64,000 nucleotides of DNA from Bacillus gaemokensis (GTDB lineage Bacteria; Bacillota; Bacilli; Bacillales; Bacillaceae_G): the NCBI RefSeq assembly GCF_001590835.1, contig NZ_LTAQ01000067.1, forward strand, positions 1 through 64,000, given 5' to 3'. The translations under genes were made by a program, and so were the position numbers. Positions 1 to 15,024 of the stretch are shown piece by piece. Numbering within the stretch: the stretch's first letter is position 1; every line of letters begins with the position of its first letter. The notes under the pieces were generated by a model. That model had not been told where the DNA came from, did not search any database, and saw only the letters and a program-made list of their open reading frames with translations.

Positions 1-44
1 AAAATCGCCAATTTTTCAGCTTTAGAATATTTCATTCGAGCCAT
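1..44 (-). CDS. Partial reading frame, probably IS3 transposase OrfA start
   Basis: Fourteen codons are visible, starting MARMKYSKAEKLAI, behind an AGGGGAG ribosome site 6 bases upstream. Short N-termini of this kind (basic residue, YS, K-E/A-KL) are typical of the HTH_Tnp_1 (OrfA) proteins of IS3 elements. The partial end repeat just upstream supports that reading. The rest of the protein lies outside the window, so the assignment is an inference. Confidence 0.45.
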   Translation of the reverse strand, partial: MARMKYSKAEKLAI

Positions 45-115
45 AAAAAATACTCCCCTTAGATAAGCAGATTTTTATATTTTATCTGTCTACCTAATGA
101 ATGGGGAGCATATCA
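1..115 (-). mobile_element. End of an IS3-family (IS150-type) insertion sequence, cut by the window edge
   Basis: Read on the minus strand from 115, the sequence begins TGATATGCTCCCCATT and continues with a TAGACAG motif. This matches the usual IS150-group end (TG..., GC(T/A)CCC, then a TTAGACA-like box) placed about 70 bp before a short helix-turn-helix reading frame. A good ribosome site (AGGGGAG) and an ATG at 44 follow, opening a frame that runs off the window. Identification is by layout and end sequence only. The opposite end and the target duplication are outside the window. Confidence 0.5.
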
Positions 116-230
116 AGATTGCTCAAATTGAATTCTACATTTTTGAGTACAAATGGAATTTTTATAAAGAAAAATCGAATGAACGAAAAAATATTTTTTA
201 GATTTATTCACCTGCTGTGCACAAAAATAA

Positions 231-266
231 AAAAGTCGTTCCCTTCTTTAAAGGAAAACGACTTTT
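231..266 (-). terminator. Terminator of the DEAD-box helicase gene
   Basis: AAAGTCGTT pairs with AACGACTTT around a short loop, with T-rich flanks on both sides. It lies just past the stop codon of the minus-strand helicase gene. Confidence 0.75.
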
Positions 267-288
267 CTATCTTGAAGTTTATTCTATG

Positions 289-1599
289 TTATCGCCCTCG
301 TCTTTGCTGACCTTGCTTTGCATCACTTTTCTTTTTACTTGATTTATGAAATGATCGTTGTTTTCCATTTTTGGATTCTTCACGATTGTCTCTTTGACGA
401 TATTGACCTGTTTTCTTTGGTTTCTTTGTGTACTCTTTTTTCTTATGCTCATTTTTTGCAGGTGCTTGATGTGCAGGTAGTTCCAATTCTTGTCTTTGCA
501 GAGTTGTACCAATGCCTTTTTCAATCTCTTTTAAATGCATTTCATCTTTCGCTGCAACAAATGTAATTGCAAGCCCCGTTCCGCCAGCACGACCAGTTCG
601 GCCAATTCGATGTATATAACTTTCTACGTCTTCAGGGACATCATAGTTAAATACATGTGTTACACCTTCTACATCTAATCCACGAGCAGCTACATCTGTT
701 GCGATTAAGTATTGAATTTTTGCATCGCGGAAACTCTTCATCACTCGTTCACGTTTTCCTTGCGATAAATCGCCATGAAGTTCATCGCAGTTATAACCGT
801 ATCCTTTTAAATCATCATATAATTTACTTGCTCTACGCTTTGTACGGCAGAAAATAACTGCTAAAAACGGCTGATCTCGGTCCATCACATGACGCAGTGC
901 ATCTTGTTTCGCACGATCCGTTGTTTCAATTACGCGTTGCTTTATACTATTTACCGTTACTTCTTCGCTTTGAATTTGAATTATCTCAGGTTCTTTCATA
1001 TAACGCTTCGCAAGTTTTTTAATATCTTTCGGCATCGTTGCTGAGAATAACATCGTTTGTTTACTCTCAGGTGTTACTTCTAAGATGTCTTCGATATCAT
1101 ATAAAAAACCGAAATGAAGCATTTGATCCGCTTCATCTAACACAAGCATAGAAACATTTGATAATACAATTGTTTCACGACGTAAATGGTCTAATAAACG
1201 TCCTGGTGTCGCTACAACAATGTGCGTATTTCCTTTTAGCTTTCTCATTTGCTGTGCAACATCTTGCCCACCATATATTGCAAGAACGTTAGTATCGTCT
1301 TTATGAACAAGCATCTTTTCAACTTCATTTGTAATTTGTAATGCTAATTCCCTAGTTGGTGCAACGATTAAAGCTTGTACATCACTTGACTCAGGGTCAA
1401 TTTTTTCTAAAATTGGCAAGACAAACGCAAGTGTCTTACCTGTTCCCGTTTTCGCTTGACCAATTATATCTTTTCCTGACATAACAATTGGTATAGCCTT
1501 CTCCTGGATTGGTGTAGCTTCAGCAATCCCATTTTCACGTAGTGTATGATTAAATGTTTCACTAATTCCTAGTTCTAAAAAGTTTTTCAAACAGATCAC
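289..1599 (-). CDS. DEAD-box ATP-dependent RNA helicase
   Basis: This 436-aa cytosolic RNA helicase unwinds RNA duplexes using ATP, as in ribosome assembly, RNA decay and cold adaptation. Visible motifs in order are the Q-motif region (ATPIQEK, about 28-34), Walker A AKTGTGKT (49-56), PTREL (81-85), DEAD (155-158), SAT (186-188), ARGLD (305-309) and HRIGRTGR (330-337). A lysine/arginine-rich tail follows from about 375 and is probably RNA-binding. The start is a GTG with AAGGA six bases upstream. The B. cereus group carries several Csh-type helicases. This one is shaped like CshA but has a shorter tail, so no symbol is given. It appears monocistronic. Confidence 0.95.
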
Positions 1600-1673
1600 T
1601 TCTTTTCCTTATTTTTCACATTAAGTTTTCATTGTACCATTTGTTTCACTAAATATGAAAAATAAGATAATTC

Positions 1674-1943
1674 TTATCTCCTTTTTTCCTGCTCGCTATG
1701 AATTAAGTGGATCAGTTCTTTCTGTTTCTCTTTTGATTTTGGTAGAAATTTCATATTTGCAGGCGACAAAATAAATTTCTTGATTTTTCTATTATTCCAT
1801 ATAAGCCATGTGTATCTTGAGTCTTCATGTAATTTTCGAAACCATTCTCCTTCACTTAGCTTTGCAATATGATGCTTTAGCTTCACGTCTGCTCTCGGAT
1901 AAAACAATATAATATCTGCTATCACATCAAACAAAATGCCCAT
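1674..1943 (-). CDS. Small conserved-type hypothetical protein
   Basis: An 89-aa protein, start MGILFDVIADIILFYP, with a good TAGGAGAAAG ribosome site six to seven bases before the ATG. The first 15 residues are hydrophobic and the remainder is basic, with a charged C-terminus (EQEKRR). I recognise no family. It lies just upstream of the helicase gene on the same strand, 74 bp apart, and could share its transcript. Cytosolic or membrane-associated placement cannot be decided from sequence. Confidence 0.7.
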   Translation of the reverse strand: MGILFDVIADIILFYPRADVKLKHHIAKLSEGEWFRKLHEDSRYTWLIWNNRKIKKFILSPANMKFLPKSKEKQKELIHLIHSEQEKRR

Positions 1944-2129
1944 ATTTCTTTCTCCTATCTTTTCCTTTTTTATCTTATGAAAATTAGCAACAAGAAAGAA
2001 ACAATAAAAAAGGTTATTTTATCGATTGTTTGTCTATCCTTTTAAAAACTCTAACTTTTAAATATTTTTACATAATGTTGAATATGCTTTTACAAAATTA
2101 ACAAAAAAGACAAAATGAGGAGTGGTTGT

Positions 2130-2459
2130 ATGGAGAAGCAGAAACTATGGAGAAAATTAAAGCACGGTGCAACAAAGTTAGGAAAGTCCGGTGCGTATGA
2201 GAGCATTATTTTATATTACACCTTACAAAAGAAAGGACTACCTACTAAAACCAAGATGATTATATTAGTTGCACTGTCCTATTACGTATGGTCAATAGAC
2301 TTAATCCCGGATCTAGCAGCTATTATTGGAATTGGTCTGTTAGACGATGTTATAGCAATTGCCTGGGCACACAAGTATATTATGGTACATACAGATGCAG
2401 GAGTTCGAGAAAAAGGGAAAATGAAAATGGAATCCTTATTTGGCTCAGCACATGCATAA
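2130..2459 (+). CDS. DUF1232 (YkvA-type) small membrane protein
   Basis: 109 aa. The central hydrophobic stretch contains the DUF1232 signature: a YYVWSIDLIPDL-like block followed by GLLDDVIAI. The family is widespread, probably membrane-associated, and of unknown function. An in-frame ATG five codons upstream (2115) is disregarded because the GAGGAG ribosome site lies between it and the ATG at 2130. The gene stands alone and ends at a bidirectional hairpin shared with the convergent gene remnant. Confidence 0.85.
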   Translation: MEKQKLWRKLKHGATKLGKSGAYESIILYYTLQKKGLPTKTKMIILVALSYYVWSIDLIPDLAAIIGIGLLDDVIAIAWAHKYIMVHTDAGVREKGKMKMESLFGSAHA

Positions 2460-2471
2460 TACACGAAATAG

Positions 2472-2499
2472 AAAAGACGGTTTTCATAACCGTCTTTTC
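2472..2499. terminator. Bidirectional terminator between convergent genes
   Basis: AAAAGACGG pairs with CCGTCTTTT around a short loop. It separates the DUF1232 gene from the converging minus-strand operon end. Confidence 0.85.
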
Positions 2500-2500
2500 A

Positions 2501-2881
2501 CTATACATGTACTTGTTCCACGTACATCTGTAAACTATTCAACATTCTTTTCATTTCACGTTCTTTATAATGATTTAAGCAAGCGATTTGAACCCAATTA
2601 TTTTGTTGCAAATAGGATGATTCATAATGGATGATGAATCCTTGTAACGCTAATGAGTCCCCTATTTCTTTAGACGAAAGTTCTCTACCTAGTGCGATTG
2701 TAAGAATGATAGGTGCAGCATGTTCCTTAGGTGAAACAAGTTGCAATCCCATATTATTGACAGCTTTTTCAATAAAAGCATACGTTTGATATATTTTTTT
2801 ATACTTATGTTCATCTTCAAATCTCTTTAATGCTTCTTGCAATGCATGAATTAAATTCCAAGACTGAGAATAACTTTCCAT
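2501..2881 (-). pseudogene. C-terminal remnant of a class V-type PLP aminotransferase
   Basis: Only about 126 codons remain. The block GLQLVSPKEHAAPIILTI, then QGFIIHYESSYL and NNWVQIACL, resembles the small C-terminal domain of class V aminotransferases that end in 'GF-L-Y-S-YL--RNW-QICL'. The PLP-lysine domain is absent. Its 5' end runs in another frame into a truncated PlsY-like gene, which points to a deletion joining two neighbouring genes. The ATG at 2881 has no convincing ribosome site. It is probably not functional. Confidence 0.6.
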
Positions 2882-3198
2882 TTAAAGAGAATAGGGTATA
2901 CATGCCCTATAATAACTGCTAATAACGAAAGTAATAAAAATATAGAATCCTCAAAGAAGAGGCTTGCTACATACACAACAATTACACCTTTAAGCGCATC
3001 CCCTAAAAATGTAGCAATAAAATATCCTTTTCCATATACCCTTCCCATATTACGGGCACCGGGATTTCCGCTACCAGCTTCTCGAATATCTATCCCATAT
3101 TTCCATTTTGTAATCATATCTGCCGTTAACATGTTCCCCACCATATAAGCGCCTATTACATATAGAAGCTGGTTCATACTGATCATGTAATCATTCAC
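2851..3198 (-). pseudogene. Truncated PlsY-like glycerol-3-phosphate acyltransferase
   Basis: PlsY proteins are membrane enzymes that transfer acyl groups from acyl-phosphate to glycerol-3-phosphate. This copy keeps the first motif (GSGNPGARN, about residue 42-50) and the next two membrane segments. It stops after FKWK, where the family normally continues with a GGKG loop. Full PlsY is about 190-200 aa; this frame is 115 aa with an unrelated tail. The break coincides with the start of the aminotransferase remnant, so one deletion has removed the rest of both genes. The core PlsY is expected elsewhere in the genome. Confidence 0.7.
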
Positions 3199-3225
3199 TT
3201 TCTAAATAAAAGTAGTTTGCTATTT

Positions 3226-3520
3226 TCATAAAATCCCCCATGTATACGAGGTATATTGGAAAGCGATAAAATAACATATAACACTCACTACTGTTGTAAT
3301 CACTATCAATTTCCATGCAATTACACGTAAAGATTTAAAATATTGTATACTATATCCTGCTAACCAGGCTACAAATACACTTACGGGTACTATAACTTGC
3401 AGTTTATACAATGGAACTTTATCGATTCCTATAATAGCTATAATATTTATAAATACTATAAATAAGAAAATTGGAAATAGAATTCTAAATAGCCCCCCCT
3501 ATTTTAACCCCAAGGCTCAT
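3226..3520 (-). pseudogene. Small three-helix membrane protein, frameshifted in a G7 run
   Basis: An ATG at 3520 with a GAGGG ribosome site opens MSLGVKIGG. The frame then stops just past a run of seven G (C7 on the plus strand, 3493-3499). With six G the frame continues as about 97 residues of hydrophobic sequence (FRILFPIFLFIVFIN, later VPVSVFVAWLAGYSI and LIVITTVVSVICYFI), ending WGIL. That is three likely membrane helices. Its place between the kinase and PlsY-like genes suggests operon membership. It may be a true mutation, a phase-variable tract or a sequencing error. Confidence 0.6.
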
Positions 3521-3558
3521 ACGATACCCTCTTTTTGTAAATAATATCAAATCCCTAT

Positions 3559-4458
3559 TTAAAATAAAGATAATCTTTTTGCCGCTAAAAAATAAGCGCC
3601 TTTAGCTGATGAGATTTCACTTTTGATAAAGTTTATTTTATTGATATGCTCCCTGCAGCATCTCTTAAATTCAGCATATATTTCCGGAACTGAACAAAGT
3701 ATTCCGCCTTTTACTGCAATGGAAATTGGCACTTCAAATGACATCTTCTTATAAACATCGACTGTAATTCTTGCTAATTCTTTACCAGCTTGCAATATAA
3801 TTTTGGACGCATCATTATTTCCTTTTCTAGCTTCTTCTATAACAAGAGGTACAATGGCAGCGACCTTATCTTTCGCTGAAGAATATACAAGCTGTTTGAT
3901 ATCAGATGGCGTGTGAATATGAAACTGCTCTTGTACTGCTTGACTAAGACTACAGAACGGAATGCCTTTATCGTATTCCATTGTCATTCTTTTTAATGCT
4001 TGCATGGCGATCCAATATCCACTTCCTGCATCTCCCAAAATGTGGCCCCAGCCCCCACTGTATTCGTAAGTCTCCCCCTTTTTCCCTAAACAGATTGCAC
4101 CTGTTCCGGCTATCGTTAAAATACCGTCTTTTCCTTTTAATAAGGCTGCATGTGCAATCATTGCATCATCATAGATTTCAATATGAGTTTGATACTTCTC
4201 TATTAAACGTTTCTTTAATCCTTCAATATCTATACTTTTGACACCTGCCAACCCTAAAATAATACAAACACAGTTCTCCTGAGGTAACCCTTGTTGACAT
4301 TGATTAATTGCAGTTATAATGTGTGATAGAGCTTTTTCATACTCTAGCAATACATTTCCAAAACGACTCATTCCTTTTGCAACTTCTTTCCCATTTTGAT
4401 TAAACGCTATTGCTTCTGTTTTCGTTCCACCACCGTCTACACCAATCATATACTTCAT
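3559..4458 (-). CDS. BadF/BcrA-type sugar kinase (GlcNAc/MurNAc kinase-like)
   Basis: A 299-aa ASKHA-fold kinase. The phosphate-1 motif GVDGGGTKTEA is at residues 6-16, the adenosine/phosphate-2 region GTGAICLGKKG is near 117-127, and a GGWGHILGDAGSGYWI block follows. These are hallmarks of N-acetylglucosamine kinases and the MurK branch that phosphorylates GlcNAc and/or MurNAc. It follows anmK by 18 bp on the same strand, which supports a role in amino-sugar or peptidoglycan-sugar salvage. Its exact substrate cannot be told from sequence. Cytosolic. Confidence 0.85.
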   Translation of the reverse strand: MKYMIGVDGGGTKTEAIAFNQNGKEVAKGMSRFGNVLLEYEKALSHIITAINQCQQGLPQENCVCIILGLAGVKSIDIEGLKKRLIEKYQTHIEIYDDAMIAHAALLKGKDGILTIAGTGAICLGKKGETYEYSGGWGHILGDAGSGYWIAMQALKRMTMEYDKGIPFCSLSQAVQEQFHIHTPSDIKQLVYSSAKDKVAAIVPLVIEEARKGNNDASKIILQAGKELARITVDVYKKMSFEVPISIAVKGGILCSVPEIYAEFKRCCREHINKINFIKSEISSAKGAYFLAAKRLSLF

Positions 4459-4476
4459 TGTTTCACCTGCTCTTTC

Positions 4477-5628
4477 TCATTTCACAGTTGGTGGAAATGT
4501 TATATTCCCTAAAACAACAGATTCTCTTGCACCTGTAGCACTTGGTACATTATTAGGATTACGATGATACGTTTCATTCGCTAACACAGCAAAAGCAATT
4601 GCTTCTTTTGCTTCGGAAGAATAACCCAAATCTTCTTGTATACATACTTTACAATCTTCTTTTAAACCTTCTTTTATCATTTCTACAAGCGCCATATTAT
4701 AACTTCCGCCCCCACCAAGAATCACTTCATCAATATGATAATGCGGGAAAATAAATTCTCGATAATGATGAACAATTGAAGCGGCTGTAAACATCGTCAC
4801 AGTAGTAACTATGTCTTCCTTTCGGTGCTCCTTAAATCGCTTAAGCAATTCATCGGTAAACTCTTTTCCAAATTGTTCTCTACCTGTTGATTTAGGTGGA
4901 ACCGTTATAAAAAACGGATGATTCATACAATACGAAAGCATTTCATTTACAACTTCCCCCTGTCTTGCTAGTTCCCCATTTTTATCAAAAGGCTGCTGAA
5001 ATAATTGCTGACATACTTCATCGATCACCATATTCCCAGGTCCCGTGTCAAATGCAATCACTTCTTGTTTAGATACTCGACTTGGAATGACAGTTACATT
5101 CCCGATTCCACCAATATTTTGGAGGATTCGGTTTTTCGTTGCGTCTCTATATAAAATGAGTTCTGAATACGGAACAAGGGGAGCTCCCTGTCCACCAGCT
5201 GCCATATCCATCGTTCGAAAATTTGAAATAACCGTTGTCGCTGTTTCATAAGCAATAACAGCAGCTTCTCCAATTTGTAGTGTCGATGAAACCATTTTGC
5301 CGTCTTGAAAAGGTTGATGATAAATTGTTTGACCATGTGAACCAATTAAATCTAACTGCTCTATTGGAAAATCAGCTTGTTTACAAATCATTTTCACCGC
5401 ATTCGCAAAACATAATCCAAGTTTAAAATTCAAACTGCATATGAGTTGCACATGAGAAGTTTCCAACGATTGCGCTTGCTGAATCTCACTTTTTATTTCT
5501 TTTGAAAACGGTACTGTAATAAAGTGGATGAGTTCCACTTTTGCATCCTCACCACTTCCTTCAACATGGACAAGGGCAACGTCTATTCCATCTAAAGATG
5601 TACCAGACATTAAACCGACAACATACAT
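4477..5628 (-). CDS. anmK: Anhydro-N-acetylmuramic acid kinase
   Basis: 383 aa, the usual AnmK length. AnmK hydrolyses the 1,6-anhydro ring of anhMurNAc and phosphorylates it to MurNAc-6-phosphate. Family blocks seen are [15 protein letters not shown] at the N-terminus, [23 protein letters not shown], and LGGGGSYN near the C-terminus. The ATG at 5628 was chosen over an in-frame start 18 codons upstream because GGAGG lies eight bases before it. It sits between two tiny membrane genes and the second sugar kinase in the PTS operon. AnmK is best known in Gram-negative recycling. Here the substrate probably comes from turnover products or from other bacteria. Confidence 0.95.
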
Positions 5629-5648
5629 AGCATTACCTCCGAATTTTA

Positions 5649-5915
5649 TTAAAAAGCAATCATATAAGTAAGCAATGTACAACCAACTAGAAAAGATACA
5701 AATCTAACAAACAATTGAATTTTTGATGAATACGTACCATCTATAAAAGATACAACGATTGTCAACATAATACTTGCTGAAATACTGGTCACGATCCATA
5801 TGCTATGCATTTGGGATACTTCTAGCATTTTTAAAAGAGGCGTAAACAGAAGATTTGAGCAAACAACTACAAATAGAAGTAAAAACACGCTTTTATAACT
5901 GAATTTTATACTCAT
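5649..5915 (-). CDS. Small membrane protein of the PTS/anmK operon
   Basis: 88 aa with three predicted membrane segments (about 8-28, 38-58 and 66-86) and almost no soluble part. AAGGTGA precedes the ATG. It lies 20 bp upstream of anmK. I recognise no family. Its size and hydrophobic pattern resemble the neighbouring 69-aa protein and the frameshifted protein at 3226-3520, so the operon may carry three related small membrane subunits. Function unknown. Confidence 0.65.
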
Positions 5916-5977
5916 ATCATTTCACCTTCTTCTATTGATATAATGAAGTATGAAACTATCAACTACTACAAGTGATT

Positions 5978-6187
5978 TTATATAGATAGTTCATCTCTTC
6001 TTTTCAAAAAATAAAATGCTATGATCATATAAACGATAGCTATCCCTATACCTAATTCTGTAGTAAATAATTTCGTATATTGATGATTAAACCCCTTACC
6101 AATTTCAACTTCAATCATGAAAGAAGTGATAGACGAATTGCCTATCACTAATACATAACTATATAATTTCTTCTTATTTACAATCAT
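5978..6187 (-). CDS. Tiny membrane protein coupled to the PTS EIIC gene
   Basis: 69 aa. Its ATG overlaps the TAA stop of the EIIC gene (TAATG), so it is probably translated by coupling. It has two hydrophobic stretches (about 10-25 and 44-60) and a basic C-terminal KRRDE tail. No family recognised. The tight overlap argues that it is a real gene and perhaps a partner of the permease. Confidence 0.6.
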   Translation of the reverse strand: MIVNKKKLYSYVLVIGNSSITSFMIEVEIGKGFNHQYTKLFTTELGIGIAIVYMIIAFYFLKRRDELSI

Positions 6188-7476
6188 TACACGTTCACAG
6201 AACCTTGTTCACCATTCCCATTCTTTTCAACTTCAATCATATTTTTATCGTACATTTTAAAGAATGGCAGATAGATAAGGAATGAGATTGCTATATTAAT
6301 AAAGACTAATACAACCGCTCTCCAGTCTCCACCTGTTGCCAAATAGGCACCTATTGGGGCCGGTAATGTCCACGGCGGCATAATATAGGTCGCTGTAACG
6401 AGCCCCATCGCAGTTGCAGTATATGCAATAGTGGCAGTCACAAGCGGTGTAATAATAAAAGGAATAATTAAAATAGGATTTAAAACAATCGGAAGTCCAA
6501 ATATAACGGGTTCATTAATATTGAAAATACCAGGCACAATACATGTTCTTGACAACGCTTTGGAATATTTTGATCTACCAAACACAATCATCGCTAACAC
6601 AAGTCCTAACGTCGCCCCGGAACCGCCAATCCATATAAACCATTGGTATAATGGTTCTGGTGCAATAAAAGGAATATTGCTTGCTCCACCAGCTACTGCC
6701 TCGGCGTTTTTCCCAATATAAACTTCCCATAACGGACGTGCAACCGTACCAACAACGGAAACACCGTGAATGCCAAAAGACCAGAAGAATGTAATTAAAA
6801 ACACCGGTAGAATAACTCCAAAGTAACTATCTCCAGCTTTCACTAATGGAGCAGCTAACTTATCGACTACATGATGTAAATCAATGCTAAAAACAACAGT
6901 AATCATACTCATAATAATAATAACGAAAGCAGCAGGTATAAGTGCTTCAAAGGAACGAGATACAGATGGTGGTACTTGTTCTGGCATCTTAATCATCACA
7001 TTTTTTGTCTTACAAAACCTTAAGATTTCAACTGATAAAATGGAAACAATCATCGTAACAAATAATCCATGCCCTCCAAGGTTTGTCATTGGGAGCATAA
7101 ATCCTTTCTTATCAATTAGTTCAGGTGTCAATGTAAGCAGTAGGGAACAGACTGCAAGTTGTGCTCCTGATAAAGCATCTAATTTGTAACTTTTCGCTAA
7201 ATTATATCCAATACCAAAGGCAATATAGAGAGACATAATAAACATCGTTAACCGATATGGTATTAAAATACTCGCTTGATGTTTTGCTGCCCAAAGTGAT
7301 ATAAAGCTATCCTTTGGAAGTGGTGGAAATGCTACTATTAAAAAGAAGCTTCCTACAATAATAAAAGGTAATGCTGAAATAACACCGTCACGAATTGCTT
7401 GTAAATGCCTTTGTTCAGAAAGCCTCGCCATTGGACCAGATAAGTTATTCTCAAGAAATGAGACAAACTTATTCAT
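6187..7476 (-). CDS. PTS lactose/cellobiose-family EIIC permease
   Basis: A 429-aa integral membrane permease of the phosphotransferase system, CelB/ChbC type. It begins with the family's short amphipathic helix (MNKFVSFLENNLSGP), then DGVISALPFIIVGSFFL and about ten membrane segments. The block GIHGVSVVG and the later FNINEPVIFGLPIVLNPIL are diagnostic of EIIC of this class. It lies 11 bp after the EIIB gene. The sugar is probably a beta-linked disaccharide or amino sugar, and the anmK/kinase neighbours suggest a peptidoglycan-derived one. No EIIA gene is present nearby, so EIIA must come from elsewhere. Confidence 0.93.
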   Translation of the reverse strand: MNKFVSFLENNLSGPMARLSEQRHLQAIRDGVISALPFIIVGSFFLIVAFPPLPKDSFISLWAAKHQASILIPYRLTMFIMSLYIAFGIGYNLAKSYKLDALSGAQLAVCSLLLTLTPELIDKKGFMLPMTNLGGHGLFVTMIVSILSVEILRFCKTKNVMIKMPEQVPPSVSRSFEALIPAAFVIIIMSMITVVFSIDLHHVVDKLAAPLVKAGDSYFGVILPVFLITFFWSFGIHGVSVVGTVARPLWEVYIGKNAEAVAGGASNIPFIAPEPLYQWFIWIGGSGATLGLVLAMIVFGRSKYSKALSRTCIVPGIFNINEPVIFGLPIVLNPILIIPFIITPLVTATIAYTATAMGLVTATYIMPPWTLPAPIGAYLATGGDWRAVVLVFINIAISFLIYLPFFKMYDKNMIEVEKNGNGEQGSVNV

Positions 7477-7487
7477 ACAACTCCCTC

Positions 7488-7793
7488 CTAACCAATTAAT
7501 TCATTTACAGCTTTTAATAGTGTCGGACCACCAAGCGGTGTATAAGCCTGCGGTGGAATCACCCCACAAGGAACAGACTGCTGATCTGCTATTTTTTTTA
7601 CGGTATCAAATCTATGCCTTACTTGCGGAGCTACCATTACAACATCCCAACCATTCTTCACCTCTTCTTCTACTTCACTCGTTCCAATTGCATGGACATC
7701 CATACTGATCCCTTTTTTCTCCGCCTCTTTTTTTAAAGCGTTTACAACAATTGAACTGGACATTCCTCCAGAACATACAAATAGAACCTTCAT
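7488..7793 (-). CDS. PTS lactose/cellobiose-family EIIB
   Basis: A 101-aa cytosolic phosphocarrier. The phosphorylated cysteine is C7 in the loop VCSGGMSSSIV, the normal position in EIIB of the lactose/cellobiose class. VVMVAPQVRHRFD and the C-terminal alpha/beta pattern complete the fold. The TAGGAGGAT ribosome site is strong. It is the first gene of the operon that includes EIIC, two small membrane proteins, anmK and a sugar kinase. Confidence 0.93.
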   Translation of the reverse strand: MKVLFVCSGGMSSSIVVNALKKEAEKKGISMDVHAIGTSEVEEEVKNGWDVVMVAPQVRHRFDTVKKIADQQSVPCGVIPPQAYTPLGGPTLLKAVNELIG

Positions 7794-7822
7794 TTCATAA
7801 TCCTCCTATATGCTTTAAGTAA

Positions 7823-7849
7823 TTTTTATCCCTTTTCAAGGATTGTCAA
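7823..7849 (-). promoter_or_regulatory. Possible SigA promoter of the PTS operon
   Basis: TTGACA (7844-7849) is followed after a short 15-base spacer by a weak TAAAAA -10 box, about 30 bases before the EIIB start. The -35 is perfect but the spacing is poor, so this is tentative. No clear cre or RNA antiterminator element was seen. Confidence 0.3.
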
Positions 7850-7943
7850 ACCACCAACTAAAGTAAGTTTCACGTTATTAAAAATCATATGAAGAATATA
7901 GACAAATTAGTTCTGATGAAATGAAATTTCAGCAAAAATATTT

Positions 7944-8098
7944 TTTATCCTGCATTAACGGGCTGTAAGACCCCCACCTCAAAATTGAGAAAAAACAAAG
8001 AAGTTAGGTGGGGATCAACTGCCCGTAAAAGCCCGATTCGTGAGGGCTGATAATCAGTGGGGATGAAGAAAACCCCACTGATTAAAGTTTCACTTTAT
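7944..8098 (+). repeat. Full-length bcr1 repeat element
   Basis: Exactly 155 bp from one TTTAT (7944-7948) to the other (8094-8098). Inside are self-complementary blocks: CCCCCACCT pairs with AGGTGGGG, and AATCAGTGGGG pairs with CCCCACTGATT. It ends AAAGTTTCACTTTAT. This matches the known bcr1 element of the B. cereus group, a non-autonomous mobile repeat with strong RNA structure and TTTAT target duplication. Two short derivatives with the same ends occur at 57802-57854 and 62872-62925. Confidence 0.85.
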
Positions 8099-8195
8099 AT
8101 TAAATAGAAGTTTTAGCACTTTACTTTCTCAATTGCGAATCTTACATTCACATGATATAGTAGTTTTAATAATAGAATATGTTAGGAGGCGTACG

Positions 8196-9755
8196 ATGAT
8201 TTTCAGAAGATTATTAATGAGTTGTTGTAGCGTCATCTTGTTTATCCCTTTCCTGTTCATAACCCCTAAGTCCACACATGCTGAAGTACCCACTACTTAT
8301 CAAAAACAAGAATTACGTGCCGCATGGATTGCATCTGTTCTCAATATTGATTGGCCCTCCAAACCAAACTTACCGATAGAAAAACAGCAACAAGAGTTTA
8401 GAAAATTACTAGATGATGTAAAAAATGTAGGTATGAACGCAGTTGTTGTACAAATTAAACCAACCGCAGACGCTTTTTATCCTTCCAAATATGGTCCTTG
8501 GTCCGAATATCTCACCGGTACACAAGGTAAAGACCCTGGCTATGATCCACTCGCATTTATGGTTGAAGAATCCCACAAAAGAAACCTTGAATTTCATGCA
8601 TGGTTTAATCCTTATCGAATAACCATGAACCACACCGATTTAAATCGTTTAGCAGAAACTCATCCCGCTAAACAACATCCTGATTGGGTTATACCTTACG
8701 GCGGGAAACTATACTATAATCCCGGTATTCCAGAAGTGAAAAATTTTATAACTGAAAGTGTATTAGAAGTTGTACAAAACTATAATATTGATGCAGTTCA
8801 CATGGACGATTATTTCTATCCCTACAAAATAGTTGGCGAGGAGTTCCCAGATCGAAGCACATATGAATCATATAATAACGGAAGATTCTCTACTATAGAA
8901 GACTGGCGCCGTGATAACGTGAACCAACTTGTAAGTGGTTTAAATACTGCTATTAAACAAGAAAAGTCGTATGTGAAGTTTGGAATTAGTCCATTTGGCG
9001 TATGGAGGAATATCGCTGACGACCCAACTGGTTCTAACACAACCGCTGGACAACGAAATTACGATGACTTATATGCCGACACACGAGAATGGATTCAAAA
9101 AGGATATATTGACTATATTACTCCTCAAATCTATTGGAATATCGGTTTTGCACCTGCAGCATATGACATCTTATTAAATTGGTGGGTGAAAGAAACCATA
9201 AACAAACCAATTCACTTATATATTGGCCAAGCTGCATATAAAATTAATAACAACTCAGTTCCCGCATGGTCAGACCCTGAAGAATATCCAAGACAAATTG
9301 CACTAAACCATCAATATTCACAAATAAAAGGAAGTATGCATTTTAGCCTTAAAGATATAAATAATAATCCATTAGGAATAAAAGATCGACTGCAAAATGA
9401 CATTTACGAACACCCTGCATTAATTCCACCAATGCCTTGGTTAGATAAAGATCCACCTGAGCAACCTACGTTAAAAGGTGCTATCTCTAGAAATGATGGT
9501 GTTGCTTTAGGAATCCTCGATGATAGAGACAATGACTCTACGTATTATGCAATCTATCGGGTAAATGGAAAGAACGACATTGATATTCAAAAAGCAGAAA
9601 ATCTCCTTACTACTGTACGAAAAACAAAATCTGGGGAAATTTACGTAGATAAGACCGCTACACCTGGTGAAACGTATACGTATGTAGTAACCGCACTGGA
9701 TCGATTGCATAACGAAAGCACTGCCTCGAACAAAACTACTATTAAAATGAAATAG
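8196..9755 (+). CDS. Secreted GHL10-family (DUF187, YngK-like) glycosidase
   Basis: 519 aa, starting at the ATG preceded by TTAGGAGGCG; an upstream in-frame ATG at 8133 has no ribosome site. A signal peptide (basic MIFRR, hydrophobic core, cleavage near THA-EV) leads into the family start LRAAWIASVLNIDWPS and the TIM-barrel blocks HAWFNPYRI, HMDDYFYPY, GISPFGVWRN and YITPQIYW. A fibronectin-like domain fills the last 90 residues or so. GHL10 proteins include E. coli DigH, which cuts peptide-free peptidoglycan strands. This is therefore probably an exported cell-wall glycan hydrolase, divergent from a peptidoglycan-sugar PTS operon. Confidence 0.88.
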   Translation: MIFRRLLMSCCSVILFIPFLFITPKSTHAEVPTTYQKQELRAAWIASVLNIDWPSKPNLPIEKQQQEFRKLLDDVKNVGMNAVVVQIKPTADAFYPSKYGPWSEYLTGTQGKDPGYDPLAFMVEESHKRNLEFHAWFNPYRITMNHTDLNRLAETHPAKQHPDWVIPYGGKLYYNPGIPEVKNFITESVLEVVQNYNIDAVHMDDYFYPYKIVGEEFPDRSTYESYNNGRFSTIEDWRRDNVNQLVSGLNTAIKQEKSYVKFGISPFGVWRNIADDPTGSNTTAGQRNYDDLYADTREWIQKGYIDYITPQIYWNIGFAPAAYDILLNWWVKETINKPIHLYIGQAAYKINNNSVPAWSDPEEYPRQIALNHQYSQIKGSMHFSLKDINNNPLGIKDRLQNDIYEHPALIPPMPWLDKDPPEQPTLKGAISRNDGVALGILDDRDNDSTYYAIYRVNGKNDIDIQKAENLLTTVRKTKSGEIYVDKTATPGETYTYVVTALDRLHNESTASNKTTIKMK

Positions 9756-9756
9756 T

Positions 9757-9787
9757 AAAATCCCCCACTCTATATGTGGGGGATTTT
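9757..9787 (+). terminator. Terminator of the GHL10 glycosidase gene
   Basis: AAAATCCCCCAC pairs with GTGGGGGATTTT around a seven-base loop, immediately after the stop. Confidence 0.9.
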
Positions 9788-9836
9788 ACTTTCCGTACAT
9801 TCTAAAAACAAACTACTATTTTCTTAATTCACTATA

Positions 9837-10052
9837 CTAAATGTGAATTCTATTTTCAGGATTTTTATCTACTGTATATAATACAAGTAAGAAAAACCAT
9901 TCCAACGGCTTCATTATGATATAAATGAAATCAGCTGACCATTTCGTATTGATGTGTTTACTAATTGGGTAACCATATTTATCGTAAAAATTACGAATGA
10001 CTTTATGCCATTTTCTCTCTACTCTTAAAAAATATAAATAAACTGAATCAAC
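9837..10052 (-). pseudogene. 3' fragment of an unidentified membrane-type protein gene
   Basis: On the minus strand about 71 codons stay open without a start codon: RKWHKVIRNFYDKYGYPISK, then TKWSADFIYIIMKPLEW, a hydrophobic FFLLVLYTV, ending NPENRIHI. This looks like the C-terminus of a larger conserved protein; a DUF6688-type protein is my tentative guess. The upstream part is missing and the frame is closed by a TAA. Otherwise the 420 bp between the glycosidase and xpaC holds only the two terminators. Confidence 0.45.
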
Positions 10053-10139
10053 TTAGTAATCTCAAATAAAAACAAACGAAACAACCATTTTTCAAACCAT
10101 TGTATTATAATACATCAAATAAACGTGTATTTATACTAT

Positions 10140-10174
10140 AAACCCCCTCTTGAATACTTATCAAGAGGGGGTTT
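10140..10174 (-). terminator. Terminator of the yaaN-xpaC operon
   Basis: A perfect 14-base stem, AAACCCCCTCTTGA with its complement around a seven-base loop. It lies two bases after the xpaC stop on the minus strand. Confidence 0.9.
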
Positions 10175-10176
10175 AA

Positions 10177-11007
10177 CTAGTTCTTAAACTTCTCCTTCGC
10201 CGCTCTCATTTTCACATTCAAATCATGATCAATGGAGTCTCGAATATCACGCTCTACTGCTTCCATTTCTTTTTGGAAGTTTTGTAAGTAGACCTGTAAT
10301 TCTTCTTCTTTTTCAGGACGTTGTGATGGTGGCAATTGCGCCACTAGTGACAACATATCCGTTAAATCTTTCATTAAGAACGTTTCCAATTTGTGTTGTT
10401 GTTCAAACATGCGCTGTTCTTGATAGTACGGAAGTGCATGTAATACTGAAATTGTAATTTCATCAACCGTTCTTTGTAATGAAGGATTAACTGAACGTTT
10501 ATACACTTGAATGGTATTTAACGCATCCGGATAACGGTCGTAAAAATACAATTTATAAAACGATAGATCCGTTGGTTTAGATGATTGTTGTGATTCTTGT
10601 CTTAAGAAACCCTTTACTTTCATCGCTGCTACATCAATATCTTCATTTGTAACCTTTTTCGTTTTTTTCGCCATTACGTGTACTTTTTTCTGTTTATCTT
10701 TCGGTAACATAGAGAGAACTTGTTCTCTTGCACGTTGATCCGCAGAACAGAAAAGAGTATTCAATGCTTTTTGTTCCTTTTTTCCCTCTGTACGGATCCA
10801 ACGATAAAAGAGTGGATGTTGCGTAAATTCGTGTAAAAACGGTGTTGATTTATTTGAGAGTTTTTCAATTGATTCGTGTGCTCTCTTATAAGGTTTCGTC
10901 CATGAAAAATAAAATTTCCGGCCGAAATACACAAGCAAGACAACGATTGTAAATCCAACTAAAAGCAACGTTCCAATTAGTATTAAAACCATTTTAATGA
11001 AACCCAT
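10177..11007 (-). CDS. xpaC: XpaC-like protein
   Basis: 276 aa with one N-terminal membrane anchor (about 5-28) and a long, charged, mostly helical cytoplasmic part. Family features are the YRWIRTEGKKEQKALN and VKGFLRQES blocks and the YDRYPDALNTI segment. The B. subtilis homologue was named for hydrolysis of an indolyl phosphate dye, but its true role is not settled. It follows a YaaN/TelA-type gene by 24 bp, the same pairing as xpaC-yaaN in B. subtilis, although here yaaN comes first. A membrane-stress role with YaaN is likely. Confidence 0.8.
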   Translation of the reverse strand: MGFIKMVLILIGTLLLVGFTIVVLLVYFGRKFYFSWTKPYKRAHESIEKLSNKSTPFLHEFTQHPLFYRWIRTEGKKEQKALNTLFCSADQRAREQVLSMLPKDKQKKVHVMAKKTKKVTNEDIDVAAMKVKGFLRQESQQSSKPTDLSFYKLYFYDRYPDALNTIQVYKRSVNPSLQRTVDEITISVLHALPYYQEQRMFEQQHKLETFLMKDLTDMLSLVAQLPPSQRPEKEEELQVYLQNFQKEMEAVERDIRDSIDHDLNVKMRAAKEKFKN

Positions 11008-11031
11008 CTTTTCACCTCCTCTAATGACCCT

Positions 11032-12141
11032 TTATTTCTTTGGACGCTGAATGAGCTTCTGCTTCATTTCATCATTAAATGTGTCAAGTTCAATAACAAA
11101 CTTCTTACTAGATTCAATAATGCGCTCTGATGATTTCTCAGATGCTTCAATAGCCGCAAACACATTTTGGAATGATTCTCTCAGCTTATCCATACTGATC
11201 GCAGGATTTTCAAGCAATTTAGTTGTTTCTTCTGTATTTTGTTTTAATGCTTGAGAGTTACTTAATACCATTGATTCAATTGCTTCATTCGTAGCATTCA
11301 CTGCATCAATCGTCTTACGTTGATTTGTCAATGCAAGCTGAATCGCTGCTGATACAGTAACTACGTTTTGCGTCATTGTAATCGCATTACGAATTGCTTC
11401 TGTTAACTTCTCATTGTTTTTCTTAATGATATCTACAGACGCGATAGATTGTAGTAATACACTTTTAGCTTGCTGCATGTTACGTGTACGTACAAGAATT
11501 TTCTCTAATGCATCATTAATTAATGGAATATCTTTTTGACGTTCTGGATTTTGCTTTTCTGCTTCCAACATGCCAGCAAGCTTCCGCCCTAGGTATACTT
11601 GTTTGTCAAGAGCATGAATTTTATCGTGTGATTGCTCTTTTAACATTTCTAAACCGACTGTATCTTCTTGTAAATTATCACGTCCAATAAGTAATGATCT
11701 TATAATCTCCTCAATTTGTTTATCGATGGATTGATATTTATGAACATATGTTTCAAGAGGATTTTTCTTAAAAACCTTAAACATAAATTTCTTCATACCT
11801 GATGCTTTTAGTGAATTTGGATCAAGTTCTGATACCACTTTACGCAATTCTAACAATGTATTTGGAATTTCTTCATTCTTTCCATTCATCATTGCAGTTA
11901 CCGGACGTTTTAGTGCTGATAATGTTTGTCCTGCAGCTTGTTGTTCTTTATCTCCTAAGTCTCCAAGTTGTGATAATACTTTTGAAAGGTCAGTATTTTG
12001 TTCACTATTTAACTTTTGTACATAGATATCGGCTTCTTTATTCAGTTCAACGAGTTCTTCATCTTTAATAACTGTATCAACAATTACTTCTACATTCTCC
12101 TTCACTACTGATACAGGTTCTTTTTTCTCTAATTCAGTCAA
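11032..12141 (-). CDS. yaaN: YaaN/TelA family protein (toxic-anion resistance)
   Basis: A 369-aa cytosolic, largely coiled-coil helical protein. TelA-family blocks include SALKRPVTAMMNGK, the central KKNPLETYVHKYQSIDKQI, and RNAITMTQNVVTVSAAIQLA. The family is linked to tellurite and other envelope stress, with unknown biochemistry. The TTG at 12141 is preferred because AAAGGAG lies eight bases upstream; an in-frame ATG at 12192 has no ribosome site. It is co-transcribed with xpaC. Confidence 0.85.
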   Translation of the reverse strand: MTELEKKEPVSVVKENVEVIVDTVIKDEELVELNKEADIYVQKLNSEQNTDLSKVLSQLGDLGDKEQQAAGQTLSALKRPVTAMMNGKNEEIPNTLLELRKVVSELDPNSLKASGMKKFMFKVFKKNPLETYVHKYQSIDKQIEEIIRSLLIGRDNLQEDTVGLEMLKEQSHDKIHALDKQVYLGRKLAGMLEAEKQNPERQKDIPLINDALEKILVRTRNMQQAKSVLLQSIASVDIIKKNNEKLTEAIRNAITMTQNVVTVSAAIQLALTNQRKTIDAVNATNEAIESMVLSNSQALKQNTEETTKLLENPAISMDKLRESFQNVFAAIEASEKSSERIIESSKKFVIELDTFNDEMKQKLIQRPKK

Positions 12142-12355
12142 CAAAATCGCTCCTTTATTTATATGTGCGAAATTATTTGCACTATATTTCATCTAAAATA
12201 TCGTATTCAACATGCATTACACTTGTTTGAAATCGATTTTTAATAAACGCCTGCTTATGCAGTCATTCCCTGTTTCTTATCATAAGTATACCTGTTCTCT
12301 ACATAATTTTCCTCAGACTTAAGACCTAGAAGGCTAGGTGCTGAAGGCGGATTCT

Positions 12356-13798
12356 TCACATGTTACACAGCTTATTACTCAATAATTCCGCTTTCAATTT
12401 CATTTTATCTACCTTCCCGTTCGGCTTCTTTGGTAATTGTCGTAATACAGTCCAATTTCTTGGTTGTTTATACGATATCAATTTTTGACGGCACTCTTTC
12501 TGAATATCTACTAATTCTCGAGAAAACTCTTTAACGATAACAGCCCATATGATTTCCCCGCGTTTCTCATCCTTTTCCGAAAATACTACTGCTTCTGTAA
12601 TCCCGGTGATTCCAAGTAATACATCCTCTATTTCACCAGCGTATACAAAACTCCCAGCAGCTTTTATAACGTCTCGGTCTCTGCCTACTAAAACAATTTT
12701 TCCATCTTCTCTTTGGAAACCAATATCATGTGATGTTACCCAATCTTCTATGAAAGTATTGTTCGTTTGTTCTTCAATTTCAATATATCCTTCAAAAGCT
12801 TGATCTGATCGAACAAATAATTTCCCAAAGTTTTCTGGATTAGTTGCTATTCGTTCTTTCTTCTCATTAAAGAAGGCAATCTCCACATCCGGAAATGGTA
12901 CTCCGACTGTTTCAGGTGCAGTTCTTGCATTTTCTGGTGTTAATAATGAGGCATATCCCATTTCTGATGATCCGTAATATTCATATAAAGATGATTTAGA
13001 AAAACATTCCTCAAATTTTTGTCTTTGTATAGGCAATAATTTTGTTCCGACTGAAATTACACATCCCGGAATTGTTTCCTGAACATTTCGTTTTTGCTTT
13101 GTATAACGAATTAAAGGTTCAATTAAAGCAGGTGTGATAGAAGCACATGATGCTTTTGCTTTGAAAAATGCCTCTGGTGTGAATTTGGATAATAAAGTAA
13201 CTTCAGCCCCAATAGCTAGCGCGTGAAGCGCTGGATATAACTGAGCTGAATAAGATAGATGTAACGGCACTACTACACGATCACTTTCAGTTAGCGAAAA
13301 CGCCTTACTCCATCCTTCAAAACTACAAATCCATGACCGATGACTTTTAACAAATCCTTTCGGTGTACCTGTTGAGCCAGAAGTATAACCAAAGAAATAT
13401 AACTCATCCGCTTTACTCACATGTCTAAAAGGAAATTGAATATTATTTTGCTCCATCGTTTGACATAGTGTCTCTTCACATGTGATAATCCAATTGGGCT
13501 TCGTTCTACTTATAATATCTTCCCATTCAATCTCTGTAACATCCGGATGAACAGGCATTAAAATTCCACCAATTTTTGAAATTGCAAGTGCATCTCGAAT
13601 CCATTCCATACAATTTTCTAACTTTATAATAAAAATCTGTCCTGGTATCGCTCCATCTTGCATAAGAGCTAATGCACGCTCTGAAACACATTTCGCCAAT
13701 TCATTGTAAGTCCAACTATTATGCTGTATCGAAAGTGCAACACGATTAGGATGTTTTTTTGCCTGTTCATAGAAATAAGAATGTATACGCATTTTCAA
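12356..13798 (-). CDS. AMP-forming acyl/aryl-CoA or carrier-protein ligase
   Basis: 480 aa, an ANL-superfamily adenylating enzyme. The P-loop-like YTSGSTGTPKGF (about 152-163), YGSSEMGYASL, the DIGF...GKIVLVGRDRDVIKAAG hinge region and the C-terminal catalytic lysine region PKKPNGKVDK are all present, so it should activate a carboxylate as an acyl-AMP. The TTG start has AAGGAG five bases upstream; an ATG two codons later is the alternative. It follows a SAM methyltransferase by 22 bp. The substrate is unknown. It is somewhat short for a typical acyl-CoA ligase (500-550). Confidence 0.88.
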   Translation of the reverse strand: MKMRIHSYFYEQAKKHPNRVALSIQHNSWTYNELAKCVSERALALMQDGAIPGQIFIIKLENCMEWIRDALAISKIGGILMPVHPDVTEIEWEDIISRTKPNWIITCEETLCQTMEQNNIQFPFRHVSKADELYFFGYTSGSTGTPKGFVKSHRSWICSFEGWSKAFSLTESDRVVVPLHLSYSAQLYPALHALAIGAEVTLLSKFTPEAFFKAKASCASITPALIEPLIRYTKQKRNVQETIPGCVISVGTKLLPIQRQKFEECFSKSSLYEYYGSSEMGYASLLTPENARTAPETVGVPFPDVEIAFFNEKKERIATNPENFGKLFVRSDQAFEGYIEIEEQTNNTFIEDWVTSHDIGFQREDGKIVLVGRDRDVIKAAGSFVYAGEIEDVLLGITGITEAVVFSEKDEKRGEIIWAVIVKEFSRELVDIQKECRQKLISYKQPRNWTVLRQLPKKPNGKVDKMKLKAELLSNKLCNM

Positions 13799-13820
13799 TT
13801 AATCTCCTTGTTTGTTATAG

Positions 13821-14411
13821 CTATATCTCTTCCTTTTTTCGGGCTACAAACGCTCCTTTTTGAAAAGCTAGTAAAACTGTTTCAAATGTATCGTCTTCTT
13901 CAATCATCTGAATGAATTCCGTTAACTCCTCTGCATGTGAAGTCGCATTATCAATTACAAGAATTCCTTTCAGCTCTAATATGCGCTTAATATTTTCCCA
14001 CCACCACATATATTGCGTACGCTCTGAATCTAAGAAAATGAAATCAAATGATCGATCTACTTGCACATCTAAAAAGGCTCCTGCTTCCTGATTATGAATG
14101 TCAATTCGATGTCTGAGTTTCGCCTTTTCAAAATTCACAAGTGCCTCTGCAACACGTTCCGAGGCAAGTTCAACAGTTGTAACATGTCCACTTGTTTCTT
14201 CAGCTGCATTTGCTAGCCATAATGTTGAATACCCATTGGAAGTACCAATTTCCAATACTCGCTTAGCGCTGCACCCTTTTACCAAAATGGATAAAAACTG
14301 TCCCATTTCACGAGAAATATTTCGTAATCCTTCTTCACGTTTTTCTTTTTTACTATCATGCTCTTCCCCGTATCTTTCAAGCTCTAACAAAAGTGATTCT
14401 AAGTAACTCAT
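13821..14411 (-). CDS. SAM-dependent O-methyltransferase (CCoAOMT-like)
   Basis: 196 aa. The SAM-binding motif VLEIGTSNGYSTLWLA is near 51-66, then VTTVELASER, and the post-motif FDFIFLDSERTQYMWWWE supplies the metal-binding aspartate region typical of class I O-methyltransferases of the caffeoyl-CoA type. GGTGAGG precedes the ATG. It probably forms a two-gene operon with the AMP ligase downstream, suggesting joint modification of a small aromatic or carboxylic compound. Substrate unknown. Confidence 0.85.
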   Translation of the reverse strand: MSYLESLLLELERYGEEHDSKKEKREEGLRNISREMGQFLSILVKGCSAKRVLEIGTSNGYSTLWLANAAEETSGHVTTVELASERVAEALVNFEKAKLRHRIDIHNQEAGAFLDVQVDRSFDFIFLDSERTQYMWWWENIKRILELKGILVIDNATSHAEELTEFIQMIEEDDTFETVLLAFQKGAFVARKKEEI

Positions 14412-14743
14412 GTGCTATTCCTCACCTTTCTAACAAATTTAATAATTAAAAAATTGATGAGAAAGTTGATTATGTTTGTCTACTTTCTATTATATTCGAA
14501 ACGAAATTCTTTTTCCTTCTATAAGACAAAAAATCGAATTTTTTTGTAGCATATTGTTTCATTTTTTGGTAAAGTTAATTTCTACGTGAAAATTATTGAA
14601 TCCACATTATTTTATATTCAAAATGCAATTATAAAAACCATTTACATCTTATTTATATGAATCGGTATTTCAGATCAAAGAAGCGCCTTTTTTGGACGCA
14701 TTTTCTTTTGTTTATAACTACATTTAAGGAAGGATGCTTTTAC
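14412..14743. other. AT-rich divergent intergenic region
   Basis: 332 bp between the methyltransferase and a small plus-strand gene. It is very A/T rich. No frame, clear repeat or strong promoter pair was found, though both flanking genes must start here. Confidence 0.5.
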
Positions 14744-14902: not shown

Positions 14903-15024
14903 CGTACATGACCCTAAATGTAATTCGTATTTCCCTTGTCTAATTAAAAATCAAGAGACTTCATAAATCACTTGGCAAAGAAATATTTATAAAATTTCGC
15001 ATATTATATAAGTGCTAAGAGAAT

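What the first reader, a model, noticed from the sequence alone, without database searches (positions are those of the whole stretch)
2501..9755. Divergent peptidoglycan-sugar release and uptake module
A secreted GHL10 glycosidase (family of DigH, which cuts denuded glycan strands) faces an operon with lactose-class PTS EIIB/EIIC, AnmK, a GlcNAc/MurNAc-type kinase and small membrane proteins. AnmK in a Gram-positive operon with its own PTS suggests import of an anhydro-muropeptide-derived disaccharide or of GlcNAc-anhMurNAc. I know of no described system with exactly this set.
Basis: partly seen in the sequence, partly recalled or inferred. Interest (0 to 1): 0.7.

Follow-up and report, generated by a model that had tools for sequence, protein, structure and literature searches.

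The report
Cell-wall sugar recovery operon, trimmed version
This looks like a slimmed-down copy of a recurrent bacterial gene cluster, for which I found no description, that would cut cell-wall sugar chains outside the cell, import the pieces and feed them back into metabolism.

Summary
The genes are real. A secreted GHL10 enzyme (8196-9755, +) diverges from a tight operon of lactose-class EIIB, EIIC, two small membrane proteins, AnmK and a BadF-type kinase (7793-3559, -). The stretch 2501-3411 is truncated PlsY and PhnW pieces, not part of it. The GHL10 protein's only solved relative is the lytic transglycosylase Cwp19 (53% identity over 353 residues, 13 of 13 pocket residues kept), whose products carry anhydroMurNAc ends: AnmK's substrate class. 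In 32 genomes of one order with the EIIC ortholog, nearby genes are: kinase 32, EIIA 32, MupG family 31, AnmK 30, GH4 30, MurR-like 30, MurQ 21, GHL10 17. The window keeps EIIB, EIIC, the small protein, AnmK, kinase and GHL10; MurR, GH4, EIIA, MupG and MurQ were not found in its 64 kb. Best reading: a PTS that recovers peptidoglycan disaccharides with anhydroMurNAc ends, the missing steps coming from elsewhere in the genome. That is untested: the closest EIIC found is 79% identical and no genome of the window is held. Substrate and catalysis are inferred. My searches found no paper on the set.

The parts
8196..9755 (+). GHL10 family secreted glycosidase, Cwp19-type, predicted lytic transglycosylase (ORF opens at 8133; likely ATG 8196 after GGAGG; by eye a signal peptide ending THA before E)
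   Evidence: PF02638 364 bits; Cwp19 5oq2 E 1.2e-125; 13 of 13 Cwp19 pocket residues kept; start and signal peptide read by eye
7488..7793 (-). EIIB, lactose/cellobiose class PTS, Cys7 in MKVLFVCSGGMS
   Evidence: PF02302; EIIB found in 55 of 55 relatives' loci with EIIC at about 66% or more
6187..7476 (-). EIIC, lactose/cellobiose family
   Evidence: TIGR00410 397 bits; only solved relative 3qnq
5978..6187 (-). 69-aa small protein, membrane-like by eye; its start overlaps the end of EIIC by one base
   Evidence: no family; no tblastn hit in the loci held
5649..5915 (-). 88-aa small membrane-like protein of a family found beside EIIC
   Evidence: tblastn from L014 E 1e-15; 38% identity to the L005 and L133 proteins; family in 51 of 55 loci; no Pfam or NCBIfam match
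4477..5628 (-). AnmK, anhydro-N-acetylmuramic acid kinase (likely ATG 5628)
   Evidence: NF007142 695.5 bits, cut-off 435
3559..4458 (-). BadF/NagK/MurK-type amino sugar kinase
   Evidence: PF01869; closest solved chain 8zo3, N-acetylmuramic acid/N-acetylglucosamine kinase, E 1.2e-31
7794..8195 (.). divergent intergenic region holding a structured repeat at about 7930-8100
   Evidence: folding z-score -5.84 on + and -6.77 on -; partial copies elsewhere in the window

Best explanation
A peptidoglycan-disaccharide recovery system in reduced form. Proposed path: the secreted GHL10 enzyme cleaves wall glycan as a lytic transglycosylase and leaves 1,6-anhydroMurNAc ends (inferred from Cwp19). After amidases strip the peptides, the lactose-class EIIB/EIIC imports the disaccharide, most likely GlcNAc-anhMurNAc, and phosphorylates the outer sugar at C6 (inferred from how this PTS class works). 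A 6-phospho-glycosidase splits it; in relatives a GH4 enzyme and a MupG-family (GH170) enzyme are encoded in the cluster, here one must come from elsewhere. AnmK turns anhMurNAc into MurNAc-6P and the second kinase phosphorylates the free amino sugar (GlcNAc or MurNAc). MurQ, near the cluster in 21 of 32 relatives, converts MurNAc-6P to GlcNAc-6P. Shown: gene content, layout, family assignments, conservation of the set. Inferred: every catalytic step in this organism, the imported sugar, and supply of EIIA, glycosidase and MurQ in trans.
For: GHL10 is identical to the Cwp19 catalytic domain at 187 of 353 aligned residues, with 13 of 13 named pocket residues kept; Cwp19 releases anhydro-muropeptides (PMC6016235, passages). 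Of 299 genomes of one order, 32 have the EIIC ortholog (one of them, G001, is the centre of the draw and was known to have the locus); 30 of these have AnmK, each within 12 kb; 27 have GHL10, 17 within 12 kb. Neighbourhoods of these 32: EIIA 32, kinase 32, MupG 31, GH4 30, MurR-like 30, MurQ 21; without G001, of 31: 31, 31, 30, 29, 29, 21. Over 111 distinct loci AnmK is present in 28 of 29 with GHL10 and 40 of 82 without. A Priestia megaterium plasmid, annotated by others, has the set plus murQ, anmK and a separate glucose-class PTS next to murQ, so the lactose-class PTS likely has another job. In G609 (L022) AnmK-EIIB-EIIC stand alone and the genome gave no MupG-family match but one GH4 match, which fits a GH4 route. 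The kinase's closest solved chain is named N-acetylmuramic acid/N-acetylglucosamine kinase. A C. difficile paper lists the MurNAc-6P etherase and anmK under locus tags 15565 and 15590 (PMC11633334, passage).
Against: No activity or uptake is shown for any of these proteins. EIIA, MupG, GH4, MurQ and MurR were not found in the window, and no genome of it or of close kin was at hand to look elsewhere. The reduced cluster of G617 (no GH4, no MupG) has only the C-terminal half of MurQ, so it may itself be decaying. Lactose-class EIIC is known for chitobiose and cellobiose, and the only solved relative is annotated cellobiose-specific. A MupG-family enzyme serves diacetylchitobiose in L. paracasei. 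GHL10 is not near the operon in 15 of 32 relatives. AnmK is not tied to this PTS: 39 of 69 AnmK genomes lack the EIIC ortholog, and 13 of 50 GHL10 genomes have neither. Among the 55 closest loci the GHL10-AnmK link is weak (23 of 24 against 23 of 31, p 0.03). DigH, a hydrolase, is also said to release anhydro-muropeptides from anhydro-capped strands (PMC12288456, passage), so AnmK does not by itself require a lytic transglycosylase. AnmK scores better to levoglucosan kinase (258 bits) than to solved AnmK (218 bits). The statistics are not corrected for shared ancestry.
Confidence: 0.57

Rival explanations
1. The main imported sugar is MurNAc-GlcNAc, as in the S. aureus MurP-MupG pathway: MupG splits MurNAc-6P-GlcNAc, the kinase phosphorylates GlcNAc, and AnmK with GHL10 are side branches.
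For: MupG is near the EIIC ortholog in 31 of 32 genomes and the kinase in 32; some clostridial loci have EIIA, EIIB, EIIC, MupG and kinase without AnmK or GH4 found (L025, L028, L038, L070). MupG of S. aureus does this reaction (PMC6262408, abstract and passages).
Against: The window keeps AnmK without MupG, and so do G617 and L022. P. megaterium has a separate glucose-class PTS beside murQ.
Confidence: 0.2
2. The PTS is a chitobiose or cellobiose transporter and the wall-sugar genes merely lie beside it or share its regulation.
For: The only solved EIIC relative is 3qnq, annotated cellobiose-specific; the best solved GH4 relatives are 6-phospho-beta-glucosidases; a GH170 enzyme serves diacetylchitobiose in L. 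paracasei (PMC12791066, passages).
Against: AnmK, MurR-like and MurQ genes are near the EIIC ortholog in 30, 30 and 21 of 32 genomes, hard to explain for chitin sugars. That 3qnq is the B. cereus chitobiose EIIC, hence a different paralog, is recalled.
Confidence: 0.12
3. The window copy is a dying remnant: five partner genes are gone, so it no longer works as a pathway.
For: MurR, GH4, EIIA, MupG and MurQ were not found in the 64 kb; the neighbouring PlsY and PhnW genes are truncated; the similar reduced locus of G617 has a truncated MurQ.
Against: The six operon genes and GHL10 are open, with tight spacing and the motifs I looked for by eye.
Confidence: 0.1
4. AnmK here is a kinase for another anhydrosugar such as levoglucosan.
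For: Best solved match is levoglucosan kinase, 258 bits, against 218 for AnmK.
Against: The AnmK model is passed by 260 bits; MurQ, MupG and MurR-like neighbours in relatives.
Confidence: 0.02

Closest known systems
S. aureus mupG-murQ-murP-murR pathway (Kluj 2018, PMC6262408; abstract and passages seen)
   Same: PTS import of a peptidoglycan disaccharide, 6-phospho-glycosidase of the MupG family, MurQ and MurR-type regulator in one cluster (as in the window's relatives)
   Different: A lactose-class EIIA/B/C instead of MurP, plus AnmK, a BadF kinase, a GH4 enzyme, a small membrane protein and often a secreted GHL10; in the window MupG, MurQ, MurR and EIIA were not found
Cwp19 of C. difficile (PMC6016235 and PMC5765458; passages seen)
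   Same: GHL10 domain, 53% identity over 353 residues, 13 of 13 named pocket residues
   Different: Cwp19 carries three CWB2 cell-wall-binding repeats; the window protein has another C-terminal part (fibronectin-III-like by eye). The cwp19 gene is reported in the anionic polymer locus
Gram-negative AmpG-NagZ-AnmK-MurQ recycling (PMC5061867, passages seen)
   Same: AnmK acting on anhMurNAc from lytic transglycosylases
   Different: Uptake by a PTS rather than the AmpG permease, hence phospho-glycosidases rather than NagZ
chb cluster of L. paracasei (PMC12791066, passages seen)
   Same: A PTS for a beta-1,4 amino sugar disaccharide with a GH170 enzyme
   Different: Serves diacetylchitobiose; the word AnmK does not occur in its main text

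Membership tests
Lactose/cellobiose class PTS | EIIC and EIIB of the family, EIIB with a Cys near the N terminus | tested here: met
   TIGR00410 and PF02302 above cut-off; Cys7 read from the sequence
Lactose/cellobiose class PTS | cognate EIIA encoded with it | tested here: not met
   none found in the 64 kb by tblastn with relatives' EIIA; present near EIIC in 32 of 32 relatives
AnmK | NCBIfam equivalog model above curated cut-off | tested here: met
   695.5 bits, cut-off 435
AnmK | phosphorylates anhMurNAc | not testable with these tools
   needs an enzyme assay
GHL10 lytic transglycosylase (Cwp19) | GHL10 domain and Cwp19 pocket residues | tested here: met
   13 of 13 residues; the numbering offset of 5 was set by me from the first Trp and fits the other 12
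GHL10 lytic transglycosylase (Cwp19) | anhydroMurNAc products | not testable with these tools
   needs assay and mass spectrometry
GHL10 hydrolase (DigH) | closer to DigH than to Cwp19 | not tested
   no DigH sequence was at hand; that DigH is a GHL10 protein is recalled
MurP-MupG-MurQ-MurR pathway | mupG, murQ, murR in the locus | tested here: not met
   not found in the window; near EIIC in 31, 21 and 30 of 32 relatives
MurK/NagK-type kinase | BadF family and closest solved relative a MurNAc/GlcNAc kinase | tested here: met
   PF01869, 8zo3 best
NagK_SO3507 equivalog | model cut-off of 370 bits | tested here: not met
   107 bits

The most novel reading that the evidence does not exclude
A PTS route for anhydro-disaccharides in Bacillota: a lytic transglycosylase, a lactose-class PTS and AnmK together take the place of the AmpG permease of Gram-negatives, and paired 6-phospho-glycosidases (GH4 for GlcNAc-6P ends, MupG for MurNAc-6P ends) let one transporter salvage disaccharides of both polarities, helped by an unnamed small membrane protein that travels with the EIIC.
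Probability: 0.4. Interest if true: 0.75.

Novelty: new variant of a known kind. Interest (0 to 1): 0.6.

Why it matters
In the papers I saw, sugar recycling in Gram-positives is worked out for MurNAc and MurNAc-GlcNAc. How they would recover anhydroMurNAc products, such as those of lytic transglycosylases, I did not find described. This recurrent set gives a concrete, testable uptake route, suggests a role for GHL10 enzymes and for AnmK in Bacillota, and points to an unstudied small membrane protein family.

Tried and rejected
DigH as the model for the GHL10 protein: set aside because the only solved hit was Cwp19; no direct comparison was made. The span 2501-3411 as part of the module: rejected, truncated unrelated genes. 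Rfam match in 1-16000: none at E 0.1. CcpA-type site by a recalled consensus, exact match, in the window: none. Promoter-like sites: no more than in shuffles, 22 against 24.9 expected. Near-identical plasmid copies of 4477-9755: none. Viral contigs with this AnmK: none. The MupG tree asked whether the B. cereus structure 1x7f is the ortholog of the cluster enzyme: it fell outside the Bacillaceae cluster clade, joined to one Sebaldella row with weak support (93/57). Of nine added paralog rows in that tree only two (L153, L155) were clearly the intended protein; my longest-ORF rule took wrong or doubtful frames for the rest. Quick EIIC tree: the window sits among relatives, most with complete clusters, in no starred group. 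Structure prediction of the 88-aa protein gave no result. The hhalign probability of 99.6 between the 88-aa protein and its family is not used, since that family alignment held the window protein itself.

Dropped before counts: G278 (E 4.5e-103), one of 33 order genomes, left out as a paralog; nine duplicate loci; loci L081-L132 and L153-L169 were not in the 111. In the 111, loci near contig ends can miss neighbours. On re-checking I found that MurQ in G617 is truncated and that DigH can also release anhydro products; I therefore lowered the best explanation from 0.6 to 0.57 and raised the remnant rival from 0.07 to 0.1.
Full report
What is there. The window is 31-38% GC in 2-kb steps and reads to me like a Bacillus cereus-group chromosome; this is recognition from its genes (for instance a protein with GPT collagen repeats), not a tool result. 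No whole genome is held for it and the closest EIIC found is 79% identical, so the species is undetermined. On the minus strand lie EIIB (7488-7793), EIIC (6187-7476), a 69-aa and an 88-aa small protein, AnmK (4477-5628) and a BadF-type kinase (3559-4458), with gaps of -1 to 62 bases. Facing them is a GHL10 protein with a signal peptide by eye (8196-9755). The left end of the finding, 2501-3411, holds truncated pieces of PlsY and a PhnW-type aminotransferase and is not part of the module.

The glycosidase. The only solved relative is Cwp19 of C. difficile, E 1.2e-125: 187 of 353 aligned residues are identical, and 13 of 13 residues discussed in the structure paper as pocket or conserved residues are the same (passages of PMC5765458). 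Cwp19 was shown to release anhydro-muropeptides, with some reducing-end products too (PMC6016235, passages). A lytic transglycosylase would make AnmK's substrate class.

The neighbourhood in relatives. A scan of genome contigs with the EIIC kept 80 loci of 585 relatives. tblastn and gene clustering showed a recurring cluster, and Pfam and NCBIfam named one representative each of its further members: EIIA, a MupG-family 6-phospho-N-acetylmuramidase, a GH4 enzyme, a MurR/RpiR-type regulator and MurQ. Fictibacillus gelatini (L005) has EIIB-EIIC-small-GH4-AnmK-EIIA-MupG-kinase-GHL10 on one strand: the window's order with three further genes. Four genomes with 78-79% EIIC (G170, G196, G244, G287; L133-L136) show GHL10 divergent from MurR-EIIB-EIIC-small-GH4-AnmK-EIIA-MupG-kinase-MurQ, the window layout with its gaps filled.

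How strong the association is. In a draw of 299 genomes of one order, 32 have the EIIC ortholog (one weaker hit dropped), 69 have AnmK and 50 have GHL10. The order was chosen through G001, itself a genome with the locus, which is one of the 32. EIIC and AnmK co-occur in 30 of 32, each within 12 kb; EIIC and GHL10 in 27 of 32, within 12 kb in 17; Fisher p about 7e-20 each, not corrected for ancestry. The reverse is looser: 39 of 69 AnmK genomes lack this EIIC, and 13 of 50 GHL10 genomes have neither. I looked at the neighbourhoods (14-19 kb) of all 32: EIIB 32, EIIA 32, kinase 32, small protein 31, MupG 31, GH4 30, AnmK 30, MurR-like 30, MurQ 21, GHL10 17; without G001, of 31: 31, 31, 31, 30, 30, 29, 29, 29, 21, 16. 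Over 111 distinct loci, AnmK accompanies GHL10 in 28 of 29, against 40 of 82 loci without GHL10 (p 1e-6); within the 55 closest it is 23 of 24 against 23 of 31 (p 0.03). GHL10 lies upstream and divergent, as here, in 9 of 28 loci that have both it and EIIB, on the same strand in 6, otherwise placed in 13.

An independently annotated example. Plasmid pKNU_01_2 of Priestia megaterium carries a family 10 glycosylhydrolase divergent from EIIB, EIIC, 6-phospho-beta-glucosidase, EIIA, DUF871 (the MupG family), BadF-type protein and a MurR/RpiR regulator, followed by a GntR regulator, a further PTS gene, murQ and anmK. That further PTS protein has glucose-class EIIA, EIIB and EIIC domains, as a MurP-type importer might, so the lactose-class PTS probably carries something else. 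A 116-aa ORF similar by eye to the small protein sits between EIIC and the GH4 gene.

What the window lacks. MurR, GH4, EIIA, MupG and MurQ were not found in its 64 kb. Reduced clusters occur elsewhere. G617 has MurR, EIIB, EIIC, small protein, AnmK, EIIA and kinase without GH4 and MupG, but only the C-terminal half of MurQ; its genome gave one MupG-family and one GH4 match at other places. G609 (L022) has AnmK-EIIB-EIIC only, no MupG-family match and one GH4 match in the genome. Two loci (L023, L183) have EIIB-EIIC with none of the partners I searched for nearby. So loss of the partners recurs; whether the rest still works is open. For the window's presumed group, Kluj et al. report three MupG-family paralogs in Bacillus anthracis and a B. 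cereus structure, 1x7f (PMC6262408, passages); 1x7f fell outside the cluster-type clade in my tree, with weak support. Supply in trans is plausible but untested.

Mechanism. Secreted cutting to anhydro ends, uptake with C6 phosphorylation, splitting by a 6-phospho-glycosidase, then AnmK and the second kinase, then MurQ. GH4 enzymes act through the C3 hydroxyl of the outer sugar (recalled), which MurNAc lacks, so GH4 would suit GlcNAc-6P ends and MupG MurNAc-6P ends; this is my inference for why both are present. The kinase is closest to a solved MurNAc/GlcNAc kinase.

The small protein. The 88-aa protein belongs to a family found in 51 of 55 loci with EIIC at about 66% or more, in the gene order next to EIIC, distantly related to a second family in Clostridia and Enterococcaceae (hhalign probability 96.3) and not detectably to a third. 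No Pfam or NCBIfam model matched the representatives tested.

Literature. Searches for AnmK with Bacillus and PTS, the full kinase name with Bacillus cereus (no paper), MupG (30 of 33 listed), GHL10/DigH (25 of 92 listed), GlcNAc-MurNAc with PTS, AnmK/MupG/MurK, GlcNAc-anhMurNAc and recycling in Firmicutes, MurK (12 of 20 listed) and AnmK with lytic transglycosylase terms (12 of 143 listed) showed no paper describing this set. I saw listings and, for the papers cited, passages only; most subscription papers are not in the library, so this is a limited negative.

Noticed in passing
7930-8100: Strongly structured repeat between GHL10 and EIIB (folding z-score -5.84 and -6.77 on the two strands), with TTTAT near both ends; it resembles the bcr1 repeat of the B. 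cereus group, by recall. Partial copies in the window and in L003, and a 75% match on a Pseudalkalibacillus plasmid.
   Followed up: partly
2501-3411: Truncated PlsY and PhnW-type genes side by side, apparently decayed.
   Followed up: partly
33292-34629: Protein with a GPT collagen-like stretch and propeller-like repeats by eye, like spore surface proteins.
   Followed up: no
22155-23192: Highly repetitive 345-aa protein of RADESNRSNQRAYD-type units.
   Followed up: no
L190: The wall-sugar cluster lies on a P. megaterium plasmid (typed non-mobilizable), so it may move between strains.
   Followed up: partly
L023 and L183: EIIB-EIIC pairs with EIIC 78% identical to the window's but none of GH4, EIIA, MupG, AnmK or kinase found nearby.
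   Followed up: partly
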